In this document: one piece after another, positions 9,088 through 23,837 of the stretch
Layout: the number at the start of each line of letters is the position of its first letter
Numbering within the stretch: the stretch's first letter is position 1
Origin: a virus
Reading direction: 5' to 3' (one strand)
Length of the DNA stretch: 64,000 bases
IMG/VR virus record: IMGVR_UViG_3300013132_000018
Location: 1-64,000 of that record
Made by a program: the position numbers and the translations under genes
Notes under the pieces: generated by a model
The model's database searches: none
Told to the model about the DNA's origin: nothing
The model's input: the letters and a program-made list of their open reading frames with translations, nothing else

Positions 9088-9125
9088 GAGCGCCCCGGTC
9101 ATTGCGGACCGGGGCGCTCTGTTTT
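9088..9125 (+). terminator. Strong rho-independent terminator
   Basis: GAGCGCCCCGGTC (9088-9100), loop ATTGCG, GACCGGGGCGCTC (9107-9119): 13 perfect pairs, then TGTTTT. It separates the beta-fragment region from the DUF3150 / AAA module. Confidence 0.85.
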
Positions 9126-9161
9126 AGACGGCGATTGTTTAGCATGAAAGAAGAGACACGG

Positions 9162-10160
9162 ATGTTGGATGTGCTCACGCGCAACGGCGTGCTGGGTGCG
9201 GTGTGCATTGGCTTCTGGCGTGGGCGCAAGAAGCTCCGGGCCAAGGAGATTGGAATGTCGGAGTCGGATTCGGTGGCGGCGCTGGTGTCGGTCGGGCAGA
9301 AGCGCCTGGTCAAGACGGAGGTGCTGCATCCTTTGACGCTCATCGAAGGGAGGGCGCGCGACTACCTGGCGGTCAATTCGTTTCCATTCATGGATGGGCT
9401 GGCCAACTTCATCCCCAACATCAGGCTGGCTGAGACCCAGCAGCGAATGGATGCGTTCAAGGCCGAGTTTGAGTCGGAGCGCGACAAGTTCATGCAGCGC
9501 TACGACACGCTGCGTCAGGAGAGCGTCGAGGAGTGGCGCAAGACTGCCCCGGAGATCAACAAACAGAATCCTGAGTTCCTCGTGTCGGCCATCGAAGAGG
9601 CGTTTCCGGTGGCGGCTTACGTGCAGGCCAGTTTCAAGTTCGACTTCAAGCTGTTCTCAGTGGGTGTCCCGACCGAGGTGCAGGCCAGTGGTTTGACGAT
9701 GGTGGCAGTGGGTGACCAGTTGGCGGTGATGGAAGCCCGCAAGCGCGCCGCGGCCGAGGCCTCAGCCAAGATCCGGACAGATGCCGACCGGTTCGTCAGC
9801 GAGTGTGTCAAGAGCTTGCGCGAGCAGACGGCCATGCTGTGCTCCGAAATGCTGCAGAGCATCAACGACTCCGAGAGCGGGGTGCATCAGAAGACCCTGA
9901 ACCGGTTGCGCACGTTCATTGGGCATTTCAAGCAGATGAACTTCGTCAATGACACGCAGATGGACCGGATGCTGGCGCAGGCCGAGGCCGAGTTGCTGTC
10001 GAAGTCCGCCAAGGATTACCGGGACAGCAAGGACGCCCAGACCAGCTTGATCAACGGCCTGCAGGCGCTGCGCTCCAAGGCTCAGCAACTGGCGGCCGAG
10101 GATGTGACCGGAGTGGTCAGTCAGTTTGCTGAGGTTGGTTCCCGCAACATGCTGCTATGA
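9162..10160 (+). CDS. DUF3150-like protein
   Basis: 332 residues. The opening (IGFWRGRKKLRAKEIGM, then GQKRLVKTEVLHPLTLIEGRARDYL) fits my recollection of the DUF3150 family, and the rest is largely helical with a coiled-coil-like middle (ESERDKFMQRYDTLRQ). ATG at 9162 is preferred over 9144 because GAAGAG lies 6 bases upstream. The gene opens a run of overlapping genes that continues with DUF1257-, DUF2997- and Ycf46-like members. A role as partner of an AAA ATPase is inferred from this position. Confidence 0.6.
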   Translation: MLDVLTRNGVLGAVCIGFWRGRKKLRAKEIGMSESDSVAALVSVGQKRLVKTEVLHPLTLIEGRARDYLAVNSFPFMDGLANFIPNIRLAETQQRMDAFKAEFESERDKFMQRYDTLRQESVEEWRKTAPEINKQNPEFLVSAIEEAFPVAAYVQASFKFDFKLFSVGVPTEVQASGLTMVAVGDQLAVMEARKRAAAEASAKIRTDADRFVSECVKSLREQTAMLCSEMLQSINDSESGVHQKTLNRLRTFIGHFKQMNFVNDTQMDRMLAQAEAELLSKSAKDYRDSKDAQTSLINGLQALRSKAQQLAAEDVTGVVSQFAEVGSRNMLL

Positions 10161-10791: not shown

Positions 10792-11042
10792 TGGATCTGT
10801 TCATTGATGCCGCCGGCAACATCACGGCGCTGCACTCTGATCTCATCCCGCTACCTGAACTTGGTCGCATGACCACGCGCCGGGTGTCCGACATACGGTG
10901 GTCGGACCCCCGGCAGGTATGGGAGGTGTTCGGATTGGCAGAAGGACGGGTTTTGTTCAGTGATCGGGACCGGTCGGTGTGCCTGTCCTGGGAGGTGGAG
11001 TATTTCAACGGAAAGATTTTGAATGAAGAAGTTCTCGGCTGA
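10791..11042 (+). CDS. Small hypothetical protein of the AAA module
   Basis: 83 residues from an ATG whose A is the last base of the preceding TGA. Starts MDLFIDAAGNITALHSDLIP and contains a RRVSDIRWSD segment, resembling small phage proteins of unknown function with a R.S.I pattern. Overlaps the AAA gene start by 20 bases. Confidence 0.55.
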   Translation: MDLFIDAAGNITALHSDLIPLPELGRMTTRRVSDIRWSDPRQVWEVFGLAEGRVLFSDRDRSVCLSWEVEYFNGKILNEEVLG

Positions 11043-12060
11043 GTTTGTCGGCAGTTACATCCAGTGCGGCAATCCAGGGCTGTTCCTGGTCACGTCGGAG
11101 CAGCAGCGGGTGGAGCATGACTTCTTGGCGCTGGTGCGCGGTAACGTCAAGCTGTCGAAGCACAAGGTGTTCTGTTGGAACATGGCGTCTGGTGTGATCG
11201 ACCGCAAGGAGTGCAAGCAGGTCTCCGAAGCAGCGGATCCGCTGGAGGTGCTTCAACTGTTCGTGTCTCCGGATGGACAGACGTTTCCCGCCAAGTCGGC
11301 AGTGCTGCTGATGGAGGATCTGCATCTGCACCTGGAGGGCGGTGTGCCCAACGCCATTCTGATCAGCGCCATCAAGCGCACGCTGCGCATCGCCAAGTCA
11401 CAGAACAAGACGCTGGTCATGACGGGTTGCCGGTTTGTCCTGCCGCCTGAGTTGGAGCGTGAACTGGTGATGGTGGATTACGCTCTGCCCGATGCTGTCA
11501 TGCTGGGGACGGTGCTGGACAATGTGGTGAAGTCCGCCAACACCGCCATCAAGGCTTCCGGTGGGGGTGAGATCAGCTTGGAGCCGACCGCGCGCGAGTC
11601 GATTGTCGCCTCGGCGAGCGGCATGACGGTAGCCGAGGCCGAGAACGCGTTCGCGCTGTCGCTGGTCCGTCACAAGTCGGTGGTCGCCACGGTTGTGGCG
11701 GAAGAGAAGGCCTCTGCCGTCCGCAAGAGTGGTGTGCTTGAACTCGTTAGCACGCAGCTTTCGCTGAGTGATGTCGGCGGGCTGGAGACCCTCAAGGAGT
11801 GGCTGCAGACCAGGCGGCGTGCGCTGACCAAGGAAGCACGAGACTTTGGCCTGCCGTCCTTGCGGGGCATCCTGCTGCTCGGTCCTCCCGGCACCGGTAA
11901 GTCACTGGTGGCCAAGGCCACGGCCGTGTCGTTTGATGTGCCATTGGTCAAGCTGGACTTCGGGCGTCTGTTCGGCAGTTTGATCGGACAGACGGAGCAG
12001 AATCTACGCAACGCTCTCAACACGGTGGAGGCCATTTCGCCGTGTGTGTTGTGGTGTGAT
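11023..12060 (+). CDS. Ycf46-like AAA ATPase, exon 1
   Basis: 346 codons. The N-terminal domain (about 1-230) is of the Ycf46 type, with a VLLMEDLHLHLEG strand-loop that looks like a degenerate first ATPase domain. The true Walker A is LLLGPPGTGKSLVAKAT (about residues 284-300). The exon ends in the first part of Walker B, PCVLWCD, after which the unspliced frame meets TGA. Joining GAT at 12058-12060 directly to GAA at 12958 restores WCDEIEKGLSG, the expected Walker B, and a 529-residue protein. It is the ATPase of the DUF3150/1257/2997 module; substrate unknown. Confidence 0.85.
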
Positions 12061-12957
12061 TGACATTTGGTCACACCTTAAAACTGTGTGAATTGCTGGA
12101 ACAGCCTTAGAGCCTTGTTACCCTTTGGGTCGAAAAAACAAGGATTGGCCAATCAGCAGCTAAGCCTTTTTGCTGGCGCAAGCTGGTGGATCGGAAAGTT
12201 CAACGACTAGGGCTACGGCCCGTAGCTCCGAAGACGGAGCGAAGCGCACAGGTATTTTGCTTGAAAAGGTTTCTCAACTTCTGCAGCCTGACTGCATGTG
12301 GTCAAGAAACCATAACTGTTGTGTGGTATGCAGTGGTGTCGATTCTCCGCACATGGCCGGTGGCCGGTGTAGTAAATGTTATCAGGCCATCTACAGAAGC
12401 CTCCACAAGGAGCAGATGGCTGAGAGCAAGCGTCGCTGGTATAAGCGTCACATGACTCCTGAGCTTATGCGCAGCATACGCGAGGAACGTCATTTTGGCT
12501 CTAACCGGACGCTGGCTTTGGAGAGAGATGGATTCAAGTGTCAGCTTTGCGAATGCCGCGATCTTAAAAAGCTCGTTGTGCACCACAAAGATGGACATGG
12601 AAGATCTACTGATGCTCCTAATAACGATTTGGATAATCTTCAGACGCTGTGTCGGAAACATCACATCAAGGTGCATTTAGCAGAGTTGCAACTGGCCAAG
12701 AAAGGCTTGCTTGTAATACCTGATAAGATGCGTAAAGGCAGCTACCGTCAGAGACCCATTTCTGGCTGGTCTAGGTTGTATGCGCACTGCGTCGTTTGTG
12801 AGAAATCTGACAGCCCGCACAAGGGAAGAGGTTGGTGTAACCGTTGCGCCCAGCGCAAGGATCTACACCATCTCTACGAGCAAAGTCCAAGATATAGTCT
12901 GAGCTTCAAGGAAACTTGAAGAGGGTGGCTGGTATCGAGCCATCCGAAACAAAACTG
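12061..12957 (+). other. Group I intron (897 nt) in the AAA ATPase gene
   Basis: Evidence for boundaries: the last exon base is U and the last intron base is G, as group I introns require. P1 can form between exon GGTGTGA (12053-12059) and intron TCACACC (12071-12077), with the U at 12060 paired to G12070 as the wobble. P10 can form between intron ATTT (12065-12068) and exon 2 AAAT (12959-12962). The core contains AGTTCAACGACTAG near 12197-12210, typical of P7, followed by two short hairpins. Splicing at these sites restores Walker B exactly. An HNH endonuclease gene lies in the 3' part. Confidence 0.87.
12296..12919 (+). CDS. Intron-encoded HNH homing endonuclease
   Basis: 207 residues. The centre has CQLCECRDLKKLVVHHKDG...NNDLDNLQTLCRKHHIKVH (about residues 82-125): HNH motif with paired Cys. 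A similar Cys cluster occurs at both ends: CVVCSGVDSPHMAGGRCSKC at the N-terminus and CVVCEKSDSPHKGRGWCNRC at the C-terminus, so the protein seems to carry a duplicated zinc-binding module around the nuclease. The codon use is more AT-rich than the neighbours, which fits acquisition. It would cut intronless alleles of the AAA gene near the Walker B site. The ATG has no clear ribosome-binding site; upstream starts are possible. Confidence 0.88.
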   Translation: MWSRNHNCCVVCSGVDSPHMAGGRCSKCYQAIYRSLHKEQMAESKRRWYKRHMTPELMRSIREERHFGSNRTLALERDGFKCQLCECRDLKKLVVHHKDGHGRSTDAPNNDLDNLQTLCRKHHIKVHLAELQLAKKGLLVIPDKMRKGSYRQRPISGWSRLYAHCVVCEKSDSPHKGRGWCNRCAQRKDLHHLYEQSPRYSLSFKET

Positions 12958-13509
12958 GAAATTGAGAAGGGGCTATCCGGCACCAAGTCCGGCGGGGCCT
13001 CTGATGGTGGCGTTATGGATCGCGTGTTCGGTGCGTTCCTTACCTGGCTCAACGAAAAGACGGTAGATGTTTTCGTGGTCGCCACGGCGAACAAGGCAGC
13101 GGAGTTGCCGCCTGAGTTCCTTCGTCCGGGCCGGTTTGACTCCCTGTTCTTCGTTGATCTTCCGACGGCGTCGGAGCGCGAGGTCATCTGGAAGATCCAG
13201 ATGGCCAAGTATGGGCGCAAGCTCAAGGGCTTCGACCTCAAGGAACTGGCGGTCAACACCAGTGGGTTCACCGGCGCCGAGATCGAGGCCATCCTGGTGG
13301 AGGGCCTGCACATGGCATTCGCGGCCGAGCGCGATCTCAAGCAAAACGACCTGCTGGAGGCGCGCAAGCAAATCTCCCCGGTGGCCAAGGTCATGGGCGA
13401 TCAGCTTGTGCAACTGCGCAACTGGGCCAAGGACCGGACCCGTCCGGCCGGGCTGGGTTTCGCTGAGACGCCGACGGCAGAACTTGGCGAGCGTGCACTG
13501 AGCGTATGA
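12958..13509 (+). CDS. Ycf46-like AAA ATPase, exon 2
   Basis: 183 codons plus stop, completing the protein begun at 11023. It opens with EIEKGLSG (rest of Walker B), then SDGGVMDRVFGAFLTWLNEK (with the sensor region VFVVATANK), the arginine-finger block LPPEFLRPGRFDSLFFVDLP and a C-terminal helical lid. All features of the Ycf46 group of AAA ATPases are present, so the spliced protein looks active. A reading from a TTG at 12916 would make an unspliced fragment that lacks Walker A and is not expected to be functional. Confidence 0.87.
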   Translation, partial: EIEKGLSGTKSGGASDGGVMDRVFGAFLTWLNEKTVDVFVVATANKAAELPPEFLRPGRFDSLFFVDLPTASEREVIWKIQMAKYGRKLKGFDLKELAVNTSGFTGAEIEAILVEGLHMAFAAERDLKQNDLLEARKQISPVAKVMGDQLVQLRNWAKDRTRPAGLGFAETPTAELGERALSV

Positions 13510-13979
13510 ACAGGTTTGCCCATCAAACGAGCGTGTCGCCCGACAAGTCCCGGGCTGAAATCCAGGCTGTGCTGACCCGCTATGGCGCCACGGCGTTCAT
13601 GTATGGGGAGCAAGGCGGACGCGCGCTGATCTGTTTCCAGGTCAATGCGCGGATGGTGAAGTTTGTGCTGGACCTGCCGGTGGCGTAGGAGCGTGAGTTC
13701 ACGCACACGCCCACCGGCAGGTTGCGGTCACAGGCAGAGCGGTTGAAGGCCCATGACCAGGAGGTGCGGCGCCGTTGGCGGGCGCTCTGCTTGGGCATCA
13801 AGGCCAAGCTGGAGTTTGTCCAGTCGGGCATCAGCGTGTTCGAGAAGGAGTTTCTCGCCCATCTGGTGCTGCCGTCGGGCGAACAGGTTGGCGATTACGT
13901 GCTGCGGCACGCTGATCGCCTGTTGTCGGATGCAGGCAGCAGCGCATTGCTGCTGGAGTTTGGACAGGAGCCGAAATGA
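13506..13979 (+). pseudogene. Conserved phage protein broken by an in-frame TAG
   Basis: The frame gives 60 residues (MNRFAHQTSVSPDKSRAEIQ...VNARMVKFVLDLPVA), a TAG at 13686-13688, and then continues in the same frame for 96 more residues (EREFTHTPTGRL...RRRWRALCLGIKAKLE...EKEFLAHLVLPSG). Together they match in order a common phage protein of about 155 residues whose middle reads DREFTHTP. TAG is used as a normal stop at many genes here, so general recoding is unlikely. A CAG, GAG or AAG codon changed by one base, or readthrough, would explain it. It overlaps the AAA exon 2 stop. Confidence 0.75.
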
Positions 13980-14737
13980 CACAACCAACATCACTGGCGG
14001 CATTCGCCAAGATGCAGGAGCGGAAGTTGCTGACCGGCTGGTATGTGGTGATCGCGGAGGCGGTCGCCCACCAGCCCGGCATGACACAGAACGAGATCGC
14101 CCAGTGGATCCGTGAAAGCGACAGCGAACTGGCCAAGCCGCGCGAGGTGCGACGCAAGGTCCAGCCACACACCATTAGCCCACGGTTCGCGGAGATGGTG
14201 CGGCGTGGTTCGCTGGTGGAGGTTGGTTTGAAGCGGTGCAGCGTTACGGGCGAAGAGGTGAAGACCTACGCGCTGCCGGAGACTCCGCCGGAGGCGTTGT
14301 CGCCTGGTGCGCGCAGGCAGTCCAAGCTCAAGGCAGCGCTTGTGCGGATTGTCGGCTTGGAGCAGCAGGTCATGCAGTTGCAGGTGCAGTTGCAGGATGC
14401 GACGCTACGTGAGCCGATGCCGGCACTGGAGTCGGATGACCTCGGGCTGCTGCGGCTCGGGGACCCGAACCCGCCGGCCAACTGGCGTGGTTACGTCATC
14501 AGCCAGTATGCCAAGTCACCCAATGCGGCGGGCTGGCGGGTGCTGGTCGGGACGATCTTCGCGCGCGAGTTCAGCAACATGCCGGTGCCGCTGGCCGATC
14601 TGCTGGAGATTACCCGGGCAGGCTTGCGGAATGCGCACACAGGCATCGTGGCCGCCACTGGTCTGGCGGATGAAGATCTGGCCAAGATTGAAGCGTGGCT
14701 GAACGAGGCGCTCGCCCAGGTCGCGCCTCCGGCCTGA
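13976..14737 (+). CDS. Winged-helix-like protein of the AAA module
   Basis: 253 residues. The N-terminal 110 residues look like a winged helix: helix GMTQNEIAQWI, then a recognition-type stretch HTISPRFAEMVRRGSLVEVG followed by RCSVTGEEVKTYALPE. A coiled coil with VMQLQVQLQD follows, and a C-terminal helical domain (ITRAGLRNAHTGIVAATGLADEDLAKIEAWL). A transcription or replication regulator is plausible from the fold; no specific family is named. ATG overlaps the preceding stop by 4 bases. Confidence 0.6.
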   Translation: MTQPTSLAAFAKMQERKLLTGWYVVIAEAVAHQPGMTQNEIAQWIRESDSELAKPREVRRKVQPHTISPRFAEMVRRGSLVEVGLKRCSVTGEEVKTYALPETPPEALSPGARRQSKLKAALVRIVGLEQQVMQLQVQLQDATLREPMPALESDDLGLLRLGDPNPPANWRGYVISQYAKSPNAAGWRVLVGTIFAREFSNMPVPLADLLEITRAGLRNAHTGIVAATGLADEDLAKIEAWLNEALAQVAPPA

Positions 14738-14907
14738 TAAGATTTGGACGAGCCTGCCTGGTAACGGGCAGGTCACGTCCGCGGGTCGGCTTTCGTGATG
14801 GTTGCGCCGACCCGCCACTTGCAGATGCACATGACGGCATGGCAACTCTGGGTCCAATTCCCAGAGTTGTCTTTTCGCCGGACTGTGTTAATCGTCACTC
14901 ACTTTAC
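14738..14907 (+). other. Structured non-coding stretch before the tmRNA
   Basis: 170 bases with three hairpins in a row: CCTGCC / GGGCAGG near 14752-14772, GCGGGTCGGC (14781-14790) with GCCGACCCGC (14806-14815), and a terminator at 14843-14869. No tRNA can be built from it: there is no T-arm GGTTCRA and no acceptor pairing. It could be a short structured RNA or simply several terminators. The bases between the last hairpin and the tmRNA leave little room for a promoter, with GTTAAT at 14886-14891 preceded by TG as a weak -10 candidate. Confidence 0.45.
14843..14875 (+). terminator. Rho-independent terminator upstream of the tmRNA
   Basis: CAACTCTGGG (14843-14852), loop TCCAATT, CCCAGAGTTG (14860-14869), then TCTTTT. 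Ten perfect pairs and a T run. It insulates the tmRNA gene from the AAA module. Confidence 0.8.
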
Positions 14908-15325
14908 GGGCCTGAATTGGTTTCGACTGCAGATTGTGCGCCGTGAGTTGCATGCCGTGGATGATCGTTGGCCACGCTAAACTTCGATCAAAAGTATCAG
15001 CCAACTCGCAAGAGGACGCTGGTCTGCTCGCCGAAGCGGCTCGCATCATGGGCAACCCTGATGCCGTGCTCGCCAAGTATGAGCAGGCTGTTCTGGCCTA
15101 ACCAAAGCCAGCCGTTCGCCGGGTGACACCTGCTGTCCCGGAACGAACGTCATCAGCAGGTTCAATCAGCAGCCAGGCGACCGGCTGTTGGGTGTGACTG
15201 TCAGGCGCAAACCTTGTCGGCCAGTTCTCCTGGTTCGAGTCGGCAAGTTACTAACCGGGAAAAGCATGTAGAGCTTGCGGTAGTCAGTGTGCAGGACCTC
15301 GGTTCAACCCCGAGCAGGTCCACCA
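14908..15325 (+). ncRNA. ssrA: tmRNA (transfer-messenger RNA)
   Basis: 418 nt. The tRNA-like domain is complete: acceptor GGGCCTG at the 5' end pairs with CAGGTCC (15315-15321, one G.U), discriminator A, encoded CCA; T-arm CTCGG-TTCAACC-CCGAG. The 5' part has the conserved TGAATTGGTTTCGACT, and the 3' part AAAGCATGTAGAGC, close to the bacterial AAGCATGTAGTACC. After AAAAGTATCA the frame GCC AAC TCG ... opens at 15000 and runs 33 codons to TAA at 15099. The tag starts ANSQEDAG and ends YEQAVLA, about three times the length of the ten-residue E. coli tag. It rescues stalled ribosomes with host SmpB; phage copies are known but uncommon. Confidence 0.9.
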
Positions 15326-15352: not shown

Positions 15353-15387
15353 AACGCCGGTCACTTGTGTGTCCGGCGTTTCTTCTT
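15353..15387 (+). terminator. Terminator of the tmRNA gene
   Basis: AACGCCGG (15353-15360), 12-base loop, CCGGCGTT (15373-15380), then TCTTCTT. It lies 28 bases after the CCA end of the tmRNA. Confidence 0.8.
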
Positions 15388-20099: not shown

Positions 20100-20673
20100 A
20101 CTGGGCTGGGCTTATGAGCCCGAAACTTTGGTTGATGGGCCGGTCTCGGTGACGCCCGACTTCTGGCTTCCCGACATCCAGACGCTGGTGTTTGTGCAGA
20201 CCCGTGTGCTGCCCAGCGACCACTGGGAGGCCAGCATGCGCATGGTGGGGACGCTTGGCCGTCGGACCGTGTTTCTGGAAATGGACCGGCACGTCGTTGG
20301 ACCGATGGAGGACATCCCCGATCCAGCGCGCCTGGTGACCTGCCTCGACGGGTTGTTCAAAGTTGAACCAAACACGGACTGCACCTTCGCCGAGCCGGGT
20401 CAGGGTTGGTTCTGGCACAGCCGCTTTGCCCAGTCCGTTTCGCACATCAAGCAGTTGGCCAGCGGCGCGCATGTGCTGCTGATTCGATGCACCGTGTGCG
20501 GCGTGGTGCATTGGACGCATCGGGCGGGCGACATGCTCTGTCCCCGGTGTCAGTTGGGCAATTCCAGCAAACCTGAGCGCTGGCAGAAGCACATCATTCC
20601 CGCGCTGCATCTTCGGACGATGGCTGAGGTGCACCGGCTGGTTGAACAGGCCCGCAGTTTTTCCGGCGCGTGA
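20014..20673 (+). CDS. Nuclease-fold protein with a zinc motif, catalytic residues doubtful
   Basis: 219 residues. The start follows a common nuclease-like pattern: FRSKVMAEMAWWLDRFELGWAYEPE, then VSVTPDFWLPDIQ (the PDFWLP block of restriction-endonuclease-like phage proteins). In active relatives the next strand carries ExK; here it reads VFVQTR, so the active site may be lost. A CTVCG...LCPRC zinc motif follows at about 150-175. DNA binding is likely; cleavage is uncertain. Confidence 0.6.
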   Translation: MHLQSFVYRNVRFRSKVMAEMAWWLDRFELGWAYEPETLVDGPVSVTPDFWLPDIQTLVFVQTRVLPSDHWEASMRMVGTLGRRTVFLEMDRHVVGPMEDIPDPARLVTCLDGLFKVEPNTDCTFAEPGQGWFWHSRFAQSVSHIKQLASGAHVLLIRCTVCGVVHWTHRAGDMLCPRCQLGNSSKPERWQKHIIPALHLRTMAEVHRLVEQARSFSGA

Positions 20674-23600
20674 CGCCGGCGTTAGCCGAGCCAGCCGGTG
20701 GGAAGTGGTTTGCCCCACCGGCTGGCTTTCAGCGGCTCGACAAACCGTCCGAGGTGGTGTGTCATGTGGACATGCCGACTGCAATCCAGACGCCCCGGCG
20801 GGCAGTGGTCCGTGGTAGCACGCTGACCGAGGCCGACGATACCGACGTAGAGTTTGAACTGGACAGTCCTGATCAGTTCTTCGGCTCCCACATCGGCCTC
20901 ATCCCATTGCGTTCCGCGGTGGCTGGTCCGCGGCTGTTCTACGGTGCACGGTTCTACAACCAGGCTCTTCCTTTGCCGCAGGCTGAAGCTCCGCTCGTGC
21001 AGGCGCTGGCCGACAAGGATGAGCAGGGCCGTTCGTTCGATGAGATTCTCGGCAAGGCGGCAGGCGCTAGGCTGGCCAAGGCTGACGGCGTGGTTCGGGA
21101 CGTGACGCCTGACTGGATTGAACTGGAGCTTTCAGACGGCAAACGTGAGCAGGTCGAGCTTTACAACAAGCTGCCGTTCAACCGCAAGACCAGCCTGACC
21201 AATACCCCGGTGGTGAAGCCCGGCGATCAAGTGCGCTCAGGACAGGTGCTGGCCAAGTCAAACTTCACGGATGCAGAAGGCCGGCTGGCGATGGGGTTGA
21301 ACGCGCGCATTGGGCTGGTGCCCTACCTTGGCAAGTCCATGGATGATGCCGTGGTGGTGAGCGATGCGTTCGCACGCCGGCTTTCCAGCGAGCACCTCTA
21401 CGGCTACGACCTGGACAACCGCAATGGCATCAAGTTCGGCAAGGCCCATTATGCCGGCATCTTCCCTGGACGTTTCATCAAGGACCAGTTGGAGAAGCTG
21501 GATGATGACGGGGTGGTGCGTCCTGGCATGCTGGTGCAGCCTGGCGATCCGCTCATCCTGGCTACCCGGCCTCGCGTAGTGTCCAGCACGTCCGCCCAGC
21601 TTGGTTTGCTCAGCAAGCACATGAAGAACGCGCGCACCAATGCCGCTTTGCTGTGGGATCACGACGAACCAGGGACAGTGACCGATGTGGTCCGCCTGCC
21701 CGACGGTTCGGCCAAGGTCAACGTGCAAGTCATTGAGCCTACGCGACTTGGCGATAAGATCGTAATGCGATCCGGGCAAAAAGGGATAATTTCCGAGATC
21801 CTCCCTGACGACCAGATGCCACGCACGGCTGACGGCCATCCGTTGGAGGTTCTGCTCAATCCGCTGGGCATCCCCTCGCGGGTGAACAACTCGCTGGTTT
21901 ATGAGCTTCTGCTCGGCAAGGCGGCACGCAAGAGCGGCAAGCCGTTCAAGCTGCCGGCGTTCCTGCCGGAAGGTCAGCAGTGGGACAAGATCGTTGAGCA
22001 GCATTTGAAGGATGCTGGGCTGACTGACACTGAGGAGGTCTATGACCCCAAGTTTGGGCGCAAGCTGGAGCGGCCGGTGACGGTGGGCGATGGTTACGTG
22101 CTCAAGCTTCATCACACGTCAGCATCTAAGATTTCTACTCGCGGACAAGGGAGCTACACTTGTTTTGATGATATTACTGAAGTGTGCACGCGTCGAGGCT
22201 GGGTGGCGTGGCCGGATGTAACAGCCGACGATGAGTTCGCGACTGCAGATGACGGCAAGCTTGTGTTCAGTAGGGCCAGCCGTATCACAAAAGAGTTTTA
22301 CTCTGGAGAATTGGTAGGGTTTGAGGGACGGTATTTGGATTGGCTTGTGACTCCGAACCATAACCTTTTGGTCAAGTTCAGAAAGCCATCTAGTCGATTG
22401 CGTATGGAGCGCGCTGATGCGCTGTTCGGTAGGTCGTTCTACGTGCCTCAGTTTGGGTTTGCTGAGTTGCATGGTAGAAATCCTCGGCGTTTTGTTTTGT
22501 CCGGTCGCGTAATTAGAGACACTCTTGGTAGGGTGTATAACACTCCTGGGTTTGAGTGCGAGTTTGAAGACTTTGCTGATTTTGCGGGATGGTGGTTGTC
22601 CGAAGGCGAGGTTCGTTTGACTGAAGGCAGAGTTAAGTTATACCAGTCAGAGAAAGCCAATCCTGCAAAGTTCCAACAGATTGAGTCGCTTTTGAAGCGG
22701 CTAGGCGTGGCCTTCAACGCTATCCGAAGGAATGGGGTGGGTGTAGGATGGCAGTTCGCCAATAAATCATTGGCTTTTTTTCTGGCTAGTGAATTCGGGT
22801 CTGGTTCTGTCAATAAGAAGATACCAGAGTTTATGCTTTCGGCGGGTTTGTCGGCGCGTCGTAGAATGTATTCCAGCATGATGCTAGGCGACGGGACTGC
22901 CGATTCATCCGGTATGGATGTGTGCTACAACACCTGCTCCAAGAGACTGGCTGATGATTTTCAGCGGCTGTGCATTGGGCTTGGGTTTGGGTCAGTGATA
23001 AGTTATAGACCGGCTACTACTAGTAGTGCTATTAGAGGCAGAGTAGTTCATTCTGGACCTATATGGCGTTGTGGTGTCAGCCTTCGTAGGAAGTTTGCCT
23101 TGGTCGAGAATTACAGCAATCGACCCACAAGGCATTATCGCCAGCACTATGAGGGATTTGTTTATTGCGCTACTATTCCTGTAACCGGCTTGTTGCTAGT
23201 CCGCAGAAATGGTAAGCCTATGTGGTCTGGTAATTCAAACGAGCAACCCGCCCACGGCGGCGGCGAAACGGCTCAGGCCAAGCGGTTGTCTGGACTGGAG
23301 TCGCGCGCTTTGATCTCGTCGGGGGCCTACAACGTCCTGCGCGAAGGAGCTACGCTGCGGGGCCAGCGCAACGACGAGTATTGGCGTCAACTGCGCATGG
23401 GCCTTCAACCCCGGGACCCAGGTCGTCCGTTCATGTTCTCGAAGTTCCTGGCCATGCTGTCCGGTGCCGGCTATCTGGCGCGCAAGCTGCCCAAGGACCG
23501 GTATCGGCTTCAGTTCATGACCGATCGTGATCTGGATGGGTTGAATCCAACGGAATTGTCCAACGGTGAGATAGTTGACATCGGCACGTTCGAGCCGGTA

Positions 23601-23837
23601 AAGGGCGGTCTGTTCGATCCGTCCATCACTGGCCGGCAAAGCTGGGGTGCCATCAGGCTGCCCCAGCCCATGCCGAATCCGGCAGCCGAGGATGTGATCA
23701 GAAAGCTGCTCGGGTTGACACAGAAAGAGTTTCGTTCGGTGCTGTCCGGCGAGATGGAGTTGCCGGTAGAGACGCTGCAGAGACTGAGACATGAACAACA
23801 AGGAGTTGGACGCGGCAGTGCTGGAAGCGGTGGATAA
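20670..23837 (+). CDS. RNA polymerase beta subunit, C-terminal fragment with intein
   Basis: 1055 residues from GTG, about 697 after removal of the intein. The N-extein holds IGLIPLRSAVAGPRLFYGA and LPLPQAEAPLV (beta around NMQRQAVP), then KSMDDAVVVSDAF and GDKIVMRSGQKGIISEILPDDQMP with LLNPLGIPSRVN (beta catalytic block; both Lys of GDK and QKG kept). YVLKLHHT follows, with the conserved His. After the intein come SNEQPAHGGGETAQAKRLSG and LESRALISSGAYNVLREGA, the beta C-terminal clamp segment. This is the third piece of the subunit begun at 5612 and 7625. Confidence 0.9.
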   Translation: MTPALAEPAGGKWFAPPAGFQRLDKPSEVVCHVDMPTAIQTPRRAVVRGSTLTEADDTDVEFELDSPDQFFGSHIGLIPLRSAVAGPRLFYGARFYNQALPLPQAEAPLVQALADKDEQGRSFDEILGKAAGARLAKADGVVRDVTPDWIELELSDGKREQVELYNKLPFNRKTSLTNTPVVKPGDQVRSGQVLAKSNFTDAEGRLAMGLNARIGLVPYLGKSMDDAVVVSDAFARRLSSEHLYGYDLDNRNGIKFGKAHYAGIFPGRFIKDQLEKLDDDGVVRPGMLVQPGDPLILATRPRVVSSTSAQLGLLSKHMKNARTNAALLWDHDEPGTVTDVVRLPDGSAKVNVQVIEPTRLGDKIVMRSGQKGIISEILPDDQMPRTADGHPLEVLLNPLGIPSRVNNSLVYELLLGKAARKSGKPFKLPAFLPEGQQWDKIVEQHLKDAGLTDTEEVYDPKFGRKLERPVTVGDGYVLKLHHTSASKISTRGQGSYTCFDDITEVCTRRGWVAWPDVTADDEFATADDGKLVFSRASRITKEFYSGELVGFEGRYLDWLVTPNHNLLVKFRKPSSRLRMERADALFGRSFYVPQFGFAELHGRNPRRFVLSGRVIRDTLGRVYNTPGFECEFEDFADFAGWWLSEGEVRLTEGRVKLYQSEKANPAKFQQIESLLKRLGVAFNAIRRNGVGVGWQFANKSLAFFLASEFGSGSVNKKIPEFMLSAGLSARRRMYSSMMLGDGTADSSGMDVCYNTCSKRLADDFQRLCIGLGFGSVISYRPATTSSAIRGRVVHSGPIWRCGVSLRRKFALVENYSNRPTRHYRQHYEGFVYCATIPVTGLLLVRRNGKPMWSGNSNEQPAHGGGETAQAKRLSGLESRALISSGAYNVLREGATLRGQRNDEYWRQLRMGLQPRDPGRPFMFSKFLAMLSGAGYLARKLPKDRYRLQFMTDRDLDGLNPTELSNGEIVDIGTFEPVKGGLFDPSITGRQSWGAIRLPQPMPNPAAEDVIRKLLGLTQKEFRSVLSGEMELPVETLQRLRHEQQGVGRGSAGSGG
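22161..23234 (+). other. Intein with LAGLIDADG endonuclease inside the beta fragment
   Basis: 358 residues. Block A: CFDDITEVCTRRGWVAWPDV, with Cys1 and T-E-V. Block B: LDWLVTPNHNLLV with the TxxH of splicing domains. C-terminal blocks: VYCATIPVTGLLLVRRNGKP and MWSGN, ending Asn with Ser as the first C-extein residue; the penultimate residue is Gly, not the common His. Two LAGLIDADG-type helices, DFAGWWLSEGEV and MMLGDGTAD, mark a homing endonuclease. Codon use in the intein is more AT-rich than in the exteins. Excision joins GSYT to SNEQP, a normal beta sequence. Confidence 0.93.

What the first reader, a model, noticed from the sequence alone, without database searches (positions are those of the whole stretch)
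14908..15325. Phage-encoded tmRNA with an unusually long tag frame
All landmarks of a bacterial tmRNA are present, with encoded CCA and a terminator. The tag frame begins with the usual Ala resume codon (GCC) after AAAAGTATCA and runs 33 codons, about three times the ten-residue E. coli tag, ending in AVLA. A phage with its own tmRNA could rescue ribosomes on phage messages or change which proteins are tagged for degradation.
Basis: partly seen in the sequence, partly recalled or inferred. Interest (0 to 1): 0.85.

Follow-up and report, generated by a model that had tools for sequence, protein, structure and literature searches.

The report
Phage tmRNA with conserved long tag
This uncultured phage carries its own ribosome-rescue RNA (tmRNA), and the 33-residue tag it would add to stalled proteins is three times the usual length and recurs, recognisably the same, in two other unrelated groups of uncultured phages, which suggests a phage-specific tag kept by selection.

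Summary
ARAGORN and Rfam RF00023 (108 bits, cut-off 47) both place a complete one-piece tmRNA at 14908-15325. It has a G3-U70 acceptor stem, encoded CCA, PK1, a GCC resume codon with U at -5 and A at -4, and a 33-codon tag ANSQEDAGLLAEAARIMGNPDAVLAKYEQAVLA ending in TAA. Phage tmRNAs are known and tags of 8-35 residues are on record, so neither fact alone is new. Comparison adds something new. Twelve IMG/VR contigs from two other phage lineages, otherwise essentially unrelated (GC 32% and 60% against 62% here), carry tmRNAs with homologous 31-32-residue tags. Shared residues are A1, LAEA, I, N, DA, E and a terminal Ala. First and second codon positions are kept while third positions drift, so selection acts on the peptide in the proposed frame. 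A scan of about 85,000 bacterial and archaeal species genomes for the tag core gave no hit recognised as a tmRNA. None of the phages examined encodes SmpB. Best reading: a functional trans-translation RNA using host SmpB, AlaRS and ribosomes, with a conserved phage-specific long tag that probably routes products to host proteases. Proteolysis, host and purpose are inferred. New variant of a known kind.

The parts
14908..15325 (+). tmRNA gene (ssrA), one-piece standard form, 418 nt
   Evidence: ARAGORN; RF00023 108.1 bits, model 1-374 of 374
14908..14914 (+). 5' half of the acceptor stem GGGCCUG; pairs with 15315-15321; third pair is G-U (alanine identity)
   Evidence: pairs GC GC GU CG CG UA GC listed
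14956..14989 (+). Pseudoknot PK1: CGUGG 14956-14960 with CCACG 14972-14976; GAUCG 14963-14967 with CGAUC 14985-14989
   Evidence: sequence; the U-A pair in window/L134/L129 is A-U in L135/L010/L187
14990..14999 (+). Sequence upstream of the resume codon, AAAAGUAUCA: U at -5 and A at -4
   Evidence: sequence; role of these positions in frame choice from PMC2481249
15000..15098 (+). Tag reading frame, 33 codons from resume codon GCC, ANSQEDAGLLAEAARIMGNPDAVLAKYEQAVLA
   Evidence: homologous tags
15024..15065 (+). Conserved tag core LLAEAARIMGNPDA (invariant LAEA, I, N, DA across three phage lineages)
   Evidence: alignments A1 and A3; codon-position test
15099..15101 (+). Tag stop codon TAA
15298..15325 (+). 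T arm (CUCGG-UUCAACC-CCGAG), 3' half of the acceptor stem, encoded CCA
   Evidence: sequence; RF00023 alignment
14843..14876 (+). Upstream hairpin (10 bp) plus TCTTTT, probable terminator of the preceding gene
   Evidence: inverted repeat; T-rich tail seen in the sequence; not reported by the consensus scan
15353..15387 (+). Downstream hairpin (12-nt arms, 92% complementary) plus TCTTCTT, probable tmRNA terminator
   Evidence: sequence; the consensus scan picks an overlapping alternative hairpin

Best explanation
This is a functional phage tmRNA that performs ordinary trans-translation with host SmpB, alanyl-tRNA synthetase, EF-Tu and ribosomes, and carries a phage-specific, selectively maintained 33-residue tag in place of the usual ~10-residue one. 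It would be transcribed between two hairpin terminators, charged with Ala, enter ribosomes stalled without a stop codon, resume at GCC (15000), add Ala plus 33 residues and terminate at TAA. The tag probably keeps a degron function at its C-terminus (AVLA here; AVA, LLAA or LLTA in relatives). The conserved internal stretch LLAEAxxIxxNPDA, predicted as helix-hinge-helix, probably contacts a host AAA+ protease or adaptor, so that stalled products are removed in any host. Shown by sequence: the tmRNA anatomy, the frame, and peptide-level conservation across three lineages. Inferred: expression, charging, tagging, degradation, and the role of the internal stretch.
For: Complete tmRNA by two programs, with G3-U70 and CCA and PK1 with a compensatory pair. 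Homologous 31-32-residue tags in whole tmRNAs on 12 IMG/VR contigs (L135 by RF00023 at 127.4 bits). Local alignment score of the window tag to the L010 tag is 49, none of 2000 shuffles reach it, and the next best tag scores 22. Over 15 core codons, positions 1 and 2 are identical in 10-14 cases and position 3 in 5-9. The three phage lineages share almost no proteins: 1 weak helicase hit G0/G1, none G0/G2, four weak G1/G2 pairs, with GC 62, 32 and 60%. No SmpB, ClpP or Lon in the window's record and no SmpB in 11 records with homologous or other long tags, so host partners are needed. Predicted helices 2-18 and 20-32 with mean pLDDT 86.
Against: No expression, charging or tagging data. No sigma-70-like promoter was found, though this phage has its own RNA polymerase subunits. 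The penultimate Leu of AVLA differs from the usual -AA end. Another, unrelated long tag is also partly helical in AlphaFold2, so the predicted fold is weak evidence. The host is unknown, so the host tag could not be compared.
Confidence: 0.68

Rival explanations
1. The tmRNA works in ribosome rescue, but the long tag is not mainly a degron. It delays or prevents degradation, or occupies host proteases or adaptors as a decoy, so that rescue is kept while the host's tag-directed proteolysis is dampened.
For: The tag differs strongly from canonical ANDENYALAA-type tags; its core is conserved away from the C-terminus; it is predicted helical rather than unstructured; and lambda-immP22 growth needs ribosome release rather than degradation of the tagged product (PMC2481249).
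Against: The C-termini remain small and hydrophobic and end in Ala in every homologue (AVLA, AVA, LLAA, LLTA), as degrons do.
Confidence: 0.2
2. The conservation of the tag region is RNA-level (folding of the mRNA-like domain or protein S1 binding), and the long frame is a by-product.
For: The tag region folds in the single-strand model, and the mRNA-like domain is known to be structured.
Against: Third codon positions vary about twice as much as positions 1 and 2, and identity is highest in the proposed frame for five of six pairs, tied in the sixth. Most within-group changes in group 2 are synonymous (for example 7 synonymous and 1 replacement, L129/L134).
Confidence: 0.07
3. The gene is a captured or decaying host ssrA, or an attachment-site remnant, with no function in the phage.
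For: Prophages often integrate in ssrA and carry its 3' fragment.
Against: The gene is complete from end to end, all stems tested are kept, the tag is under selection, and it recurs in unrelated phages. No bacterial tmRNA with this tag was found.
Confidence: 0.03

Closest known systems
Standard one-piece bacterial tmRNA (ssrA, Rfam RF00023)
   Same: Whole architecture: tRNA-like domain with G3-U70 and CCA, PK1, resume codon with A at -4, tag frame, stop.
   Different: The tag is 33 residues, against a most frequent length of 10 (PMC11915505), and its sequence is unrelated to ANDENYALAA-type tags.
Previously described phage tmRNAs (Bacillus phage G, cluster C mycobacteriophages and Wildcat, marine methylophage Melnitz)
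   Same: Phage-encoded tmRNA; no smpB was found here in the window's record or the related records.
   Different: Phage G's tag, by ARAGORN here, is AKLNITNNELQVA, 13 residues. Melnitz is a two-piece form with a riboswitch (PMC9004378). None matched this tag in the phage collection (only near-identical tags would have been found).
Long tags of Mollicutes (about 27 residues; Mesoplasma florum, degraded by its Lon) [length from own knowledge]
   Same: Tag well over 20 residues.
   Different: Different sequence; bacterial rather than phage. No Lon in this phage record.
Other long phage tags found here (L107, L048, L187; two-piece L070, L100)
   Same: Phage tmRNAs with tags of 26-34 residues (L048 re-read).
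   Different: L048 and L107 do not align significantly with the window tag; L187 looks unlike it by eye. The two-piece ones look like a usual ~10-residue tag with an N-terminal extension.

Membership tests
tmRNA (ssrA), standard one-piece form | Covariance score over the RF00023 cut-off across the full model | tested here: met
   108.1 bits against 47, model 1-374 of 374
tmRNA (ssrA), standard one-piece form | tRNA-like domain: 7-bp acceptor with G3-U70, T arm, CCA, no anticodon arm | tested here: met
tmRNA (ssrA), standard one-piece form | Pseudoknot PK1 upstream of the tag | tested here: met
   both stems present; compensatory U-A/A-U change among relatives
tmRNA (ssrA), standard one-piece form | Pseudoknots PK2-PK4 downstream of the tag | tested here: inconclusive
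   the CM aligns this region with low posterior probability; not dissected
tmRNA (ssrA), standard one-piece form | Resume codon set by conserved A at -4 (and U at -5) | tested here: met
   GUAUCA before GCC at 15000; rule from PMC2481249
tmRNA (ssrA), standard one-piece form | Tag frame closed by a stop and conserved as a peptide | tested here: met
tmRNA (ssrA), standard one-piece form | SmpB partner available | not testable with these tools
   none in the phage record; the host is unknown
tmRNA (ssrA), standard one-piece form | Charging with Ala, tagging of stalled chains, proteolysis of the product | not testable with these tools
   needs experiment
Phage long-tag group (LLAEA..I..N.DA tag) defined here | Homologous 31-33-residue tag in a whole tmRNA of an otherwise unrelated phage | tested here: met

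The most novel reading that the evidence does not exclude
A phage-specific, horizontally shared class of tmRNA whose long, folded tag is a distinct degradation or recruitment signal: phages use it to redirect the host's trans-translation to a chosen protease or adaptor, independently of the host's own tag recognition.
Probability: 0.3. Interest if true: 0.8.

Novelty: new variant of a known kind. Interest (0 to 1): 0.5.

Why it matters
Why phages carry tmRNAs is open. A tag that unrelated phages share and conserve at the peptide level, and that was not found in a bacterial tmRNA here, says the tag itself is the selected product rather than ribosome release alone, and gives a short, testable peptide. 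It may also be a new degron for controlled proteolysis. It also shows that ARAGORN misses or misplaces some long phage tags.

Tried and rejected
Searches with neighbouring genes (13976-14734, 12916-13506) found no relative in viral contigs, and none of the window's genes recurs beside the related tmRNAs, so no shared neighbour gene explains the tag. Link to the CDC48/p97-like AAA+ ATPase upstream (11023-13509): considered as a phage unfoldase for the tag, rejected as evidence because G1 and G2 show no BLAST homologue of it. Phage-encoded SmpB, ClpP or Lon: none. Tag against PDB sequences and Pfam: nothing (a Vsr hit at E = 0.13 is chance). Tag-like segments in phage proteins: only 6-20-residue chance matches. 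Tag search in GenBank phages and plasmids: no match, but a local test shows a 58%-identical tag gives about 31 bits, too weak for databases of that size, so these negatives exclude only near-identical tags. Named phages with the nearest RNA polymerase (Arash, D69, Carin-5, YerA41) have no tmRNA over cut-off, so the gene was probably gained in, or lost outside, this lineage. L048 and L107 tags are not demonstrably homologous. The AlphaFold2 helices are weak support, since the unrelated L107 tag is also partly helical.

Full report
OBSERVATION. The window lies in a 167,647-base virus record. ARAGORN and Rfam agree on one complete, one-piece tmRNA at 14908-15325 on the + strand, and it is the only tmRNA in the record. 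The acceptor stem is GGGCCUG/CAGGUCC with G-U at the third pair, the alanine identity element, and CCA is encoded. PK1 is formed by CGUGG/CCACG and GAUCG/CGAUC. Among relatives the central U-A pair of the first stem becomes A-U. The resume codon GCC at 15000 follows GUAUCA, giving the U at -5 and A at -4 that set the frame in E. coli (PMC2481249). The tag runs 33 codons to TAA at 15099. Hairpins with T-rich tails stand on both sides (14843-14869 and 15353-15380), suggesting a separate transcription unit. The consensus scanner reports neither of these two and no sigma-70-like promoter.

IS THE LENGTH REAL? A 33-codon open stretch is not rare by chance in a 62% GC genome, so comparison has to decide. 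An unselected scan of viral contigs with a tmRNA 3'-end pattern gave L010, whose tag ADEEYRDLLAEAEQIFNNADAYVPEEALLAA aligns with the window tag at a score that no shuffle reached in 2000. A scan with the degenerate tag core brought whole tmRNAs with the same kind of tag on ten further contigs, plus L135, which ARAGORN missed but RF00023 finds at 127.4 bits. With L010 that makes twelve contigs, in three sets. Group 1 is the 31-residue tag above (L010, L123, L124, L125, L136, L138). Group 2 is AEQEEADLLAEAEAIFNNPDAFLVQEEALLAA and near variants (L128, L129, L133, L134, L139). L135 alone has ANRLSDESVLAEAEAILANPDAFLPAEVEAVA. Two later scans added no further member of this tag family. Invariant columns are A1, LAEA, I, N, DA, E and a terminal Ala.

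PEPTIDE-LEVEL SELECTION. Over 15 aligned core codons, the window against L134 keeps 11 and 12 of 15 first and second positions but only 5 third positions, and the other pairs behave alike. Amino-acid identity is highest in the proposed frame for five of six pairs and tied with one other frame for window/L135. In group 2 most codon differences are synonymous; group 1 is invariant and tells nothing. Tag frame, start and stop are therefore supported independently of the gene finder.

PHAGES. The window's phage (GC 62%) encodes RNA polymerase beta-like pieces, NAD-dependent DNA ligase, an SbcC-like protein and a helicase. Its nearest named relatives by RNA polymerase are Salmonella phage Arash, Vibrio phage D69 and others at about 30% identity, and those tested carry no tmRNA over cut-off. 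The record holding L134 (GC 32%) is a contractile-tailed phage with tail sheath, portal and DNA polymerase. The record holding L135 (GC 60%) is another, with tail sheath and major head protein and 13 tRNA genes. Across them only one weak helicase match links G0 to G1, none G0 to G2, and four weak pairs G1 to G2. Groups 1 and 2 belong to one lineage, many of whose proteins are still 31-65% identical between the groups. The homologous tag therefore occurs in three phage lineages, consistent with exchange of the tmRNA gene between phages long ago.

NOT SEEN IN BACTERIA, WITHIN LIMITS. The tag-core pattern matched 16 places in one genome for each of 84,980 bacterial and archaeal species. None was called a tmRNA by ARAGORN, and the five also checked with Rfam gave none. 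The test is an exact-pattern test, ARAGORN can miss a tmRNA (it missed L135), and contigs under 3 kb are not held. GenBank phage and plasmid searches were negative but insensitive for short peptides.

MECHANISM. The record encodes no SmpB, ClpP or Lon, and no SmpB was found in 11 other records with such tmRNAs; several of those records are fragments. If active, the RNA must use host SmpB and host proteases. Trans-translation itself follows from the anatomy. That the tag is a degron is inferred from its conserved small hydrophobic, Ala-ending C-terminus. The internal conserved stretch is predicted as two helices hinged at Asn-Pro (mean pLDDT 86); an unrelated long tag gave weaker helices at 75, so this carries modest weight. 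A binding site for a protease or adaptor is the likeliest reason for its conservation, but no sequence match in Pfam or PDB identifies it.

COMPARISON WITH THE KNOWN. Tags of 8-35 residues are on record (PMC8012679), ten is the commonest length and 97,179 tmRNAs are catalogued (PMC11915505), and 402 of 18,146 phage genomes carried a tmRNA in 2021 (PMC9004378). The RNA is thus an ordinary member of the tmRNA family. The new part is the conserved, shared long tag. Papers found here do not describe it, though the full tmRNA database could not be searched.

VERDICT.

Noticed in passing
window 11023-13509, intron 12034-12921 (+): A CDC48/p97-like AAA+ ATPase gene is split by a group I intron (RF00028, 67.4 bits) that carries an HNH endonuclease ORF (12170-12919); the two exons match phrog_8638 at 31-371 and 372-539 without a gap.
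   Followed up: partly
window 20670-23837 (+): RNA polymerase beta-like protein (Rpb2 domain 6) whose C-terminal half has a LAGLIDADG match and matches to profiles of unrelated proteins, looking like an intein insertion.
   Followed up: no
L048 4476-4886 (-): ARAGORN starts the tag at AREEYDNL; reading from the GCC preceded by U at -5 and A at -4 gives a 34-residue tag AEGYYSIEELLEAAREEYDNLVQFEQAEELEMVA. Long phage tags are misplaced by standard tools.
   Followed up: partly
L187 1151-1551 (-) and L188 7565-7890 (+): Two tmRNAs share the 23-base PK1 pattern with L135. By the -5/-4 rule, L187 would encode a 26-residue Gly-starting tag (GKSNVDFCLAFGALCYANARQDIAVI) and L188 an 8-residue tag (DNGYKMAA): similar scaffolds with swapped tags.
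   Followed up: partly
L070 5668-6137 (-), L100 4587-5039 (+): Two-piece phage tmRNAs whose long tags look like a normal tag (ANDEAFALAA, ANDSRFALAA) with a 16-21-residue N-terminal extension.
   Followed up: no
whole record G000 (167,647 bases) and G001 (170,908 bases): Both phages carry a tmRNA but no tRNA gene by ARAGORN, whereas G002 carries 13 tRNAs (ARAGORN missed its tmRNA).
   Followed up: partly
window 9102-10160 (+): DUF3150 protein (PF11348, 79 bits) upstream of the AAA+ ATPase gene.
   Followed up: no
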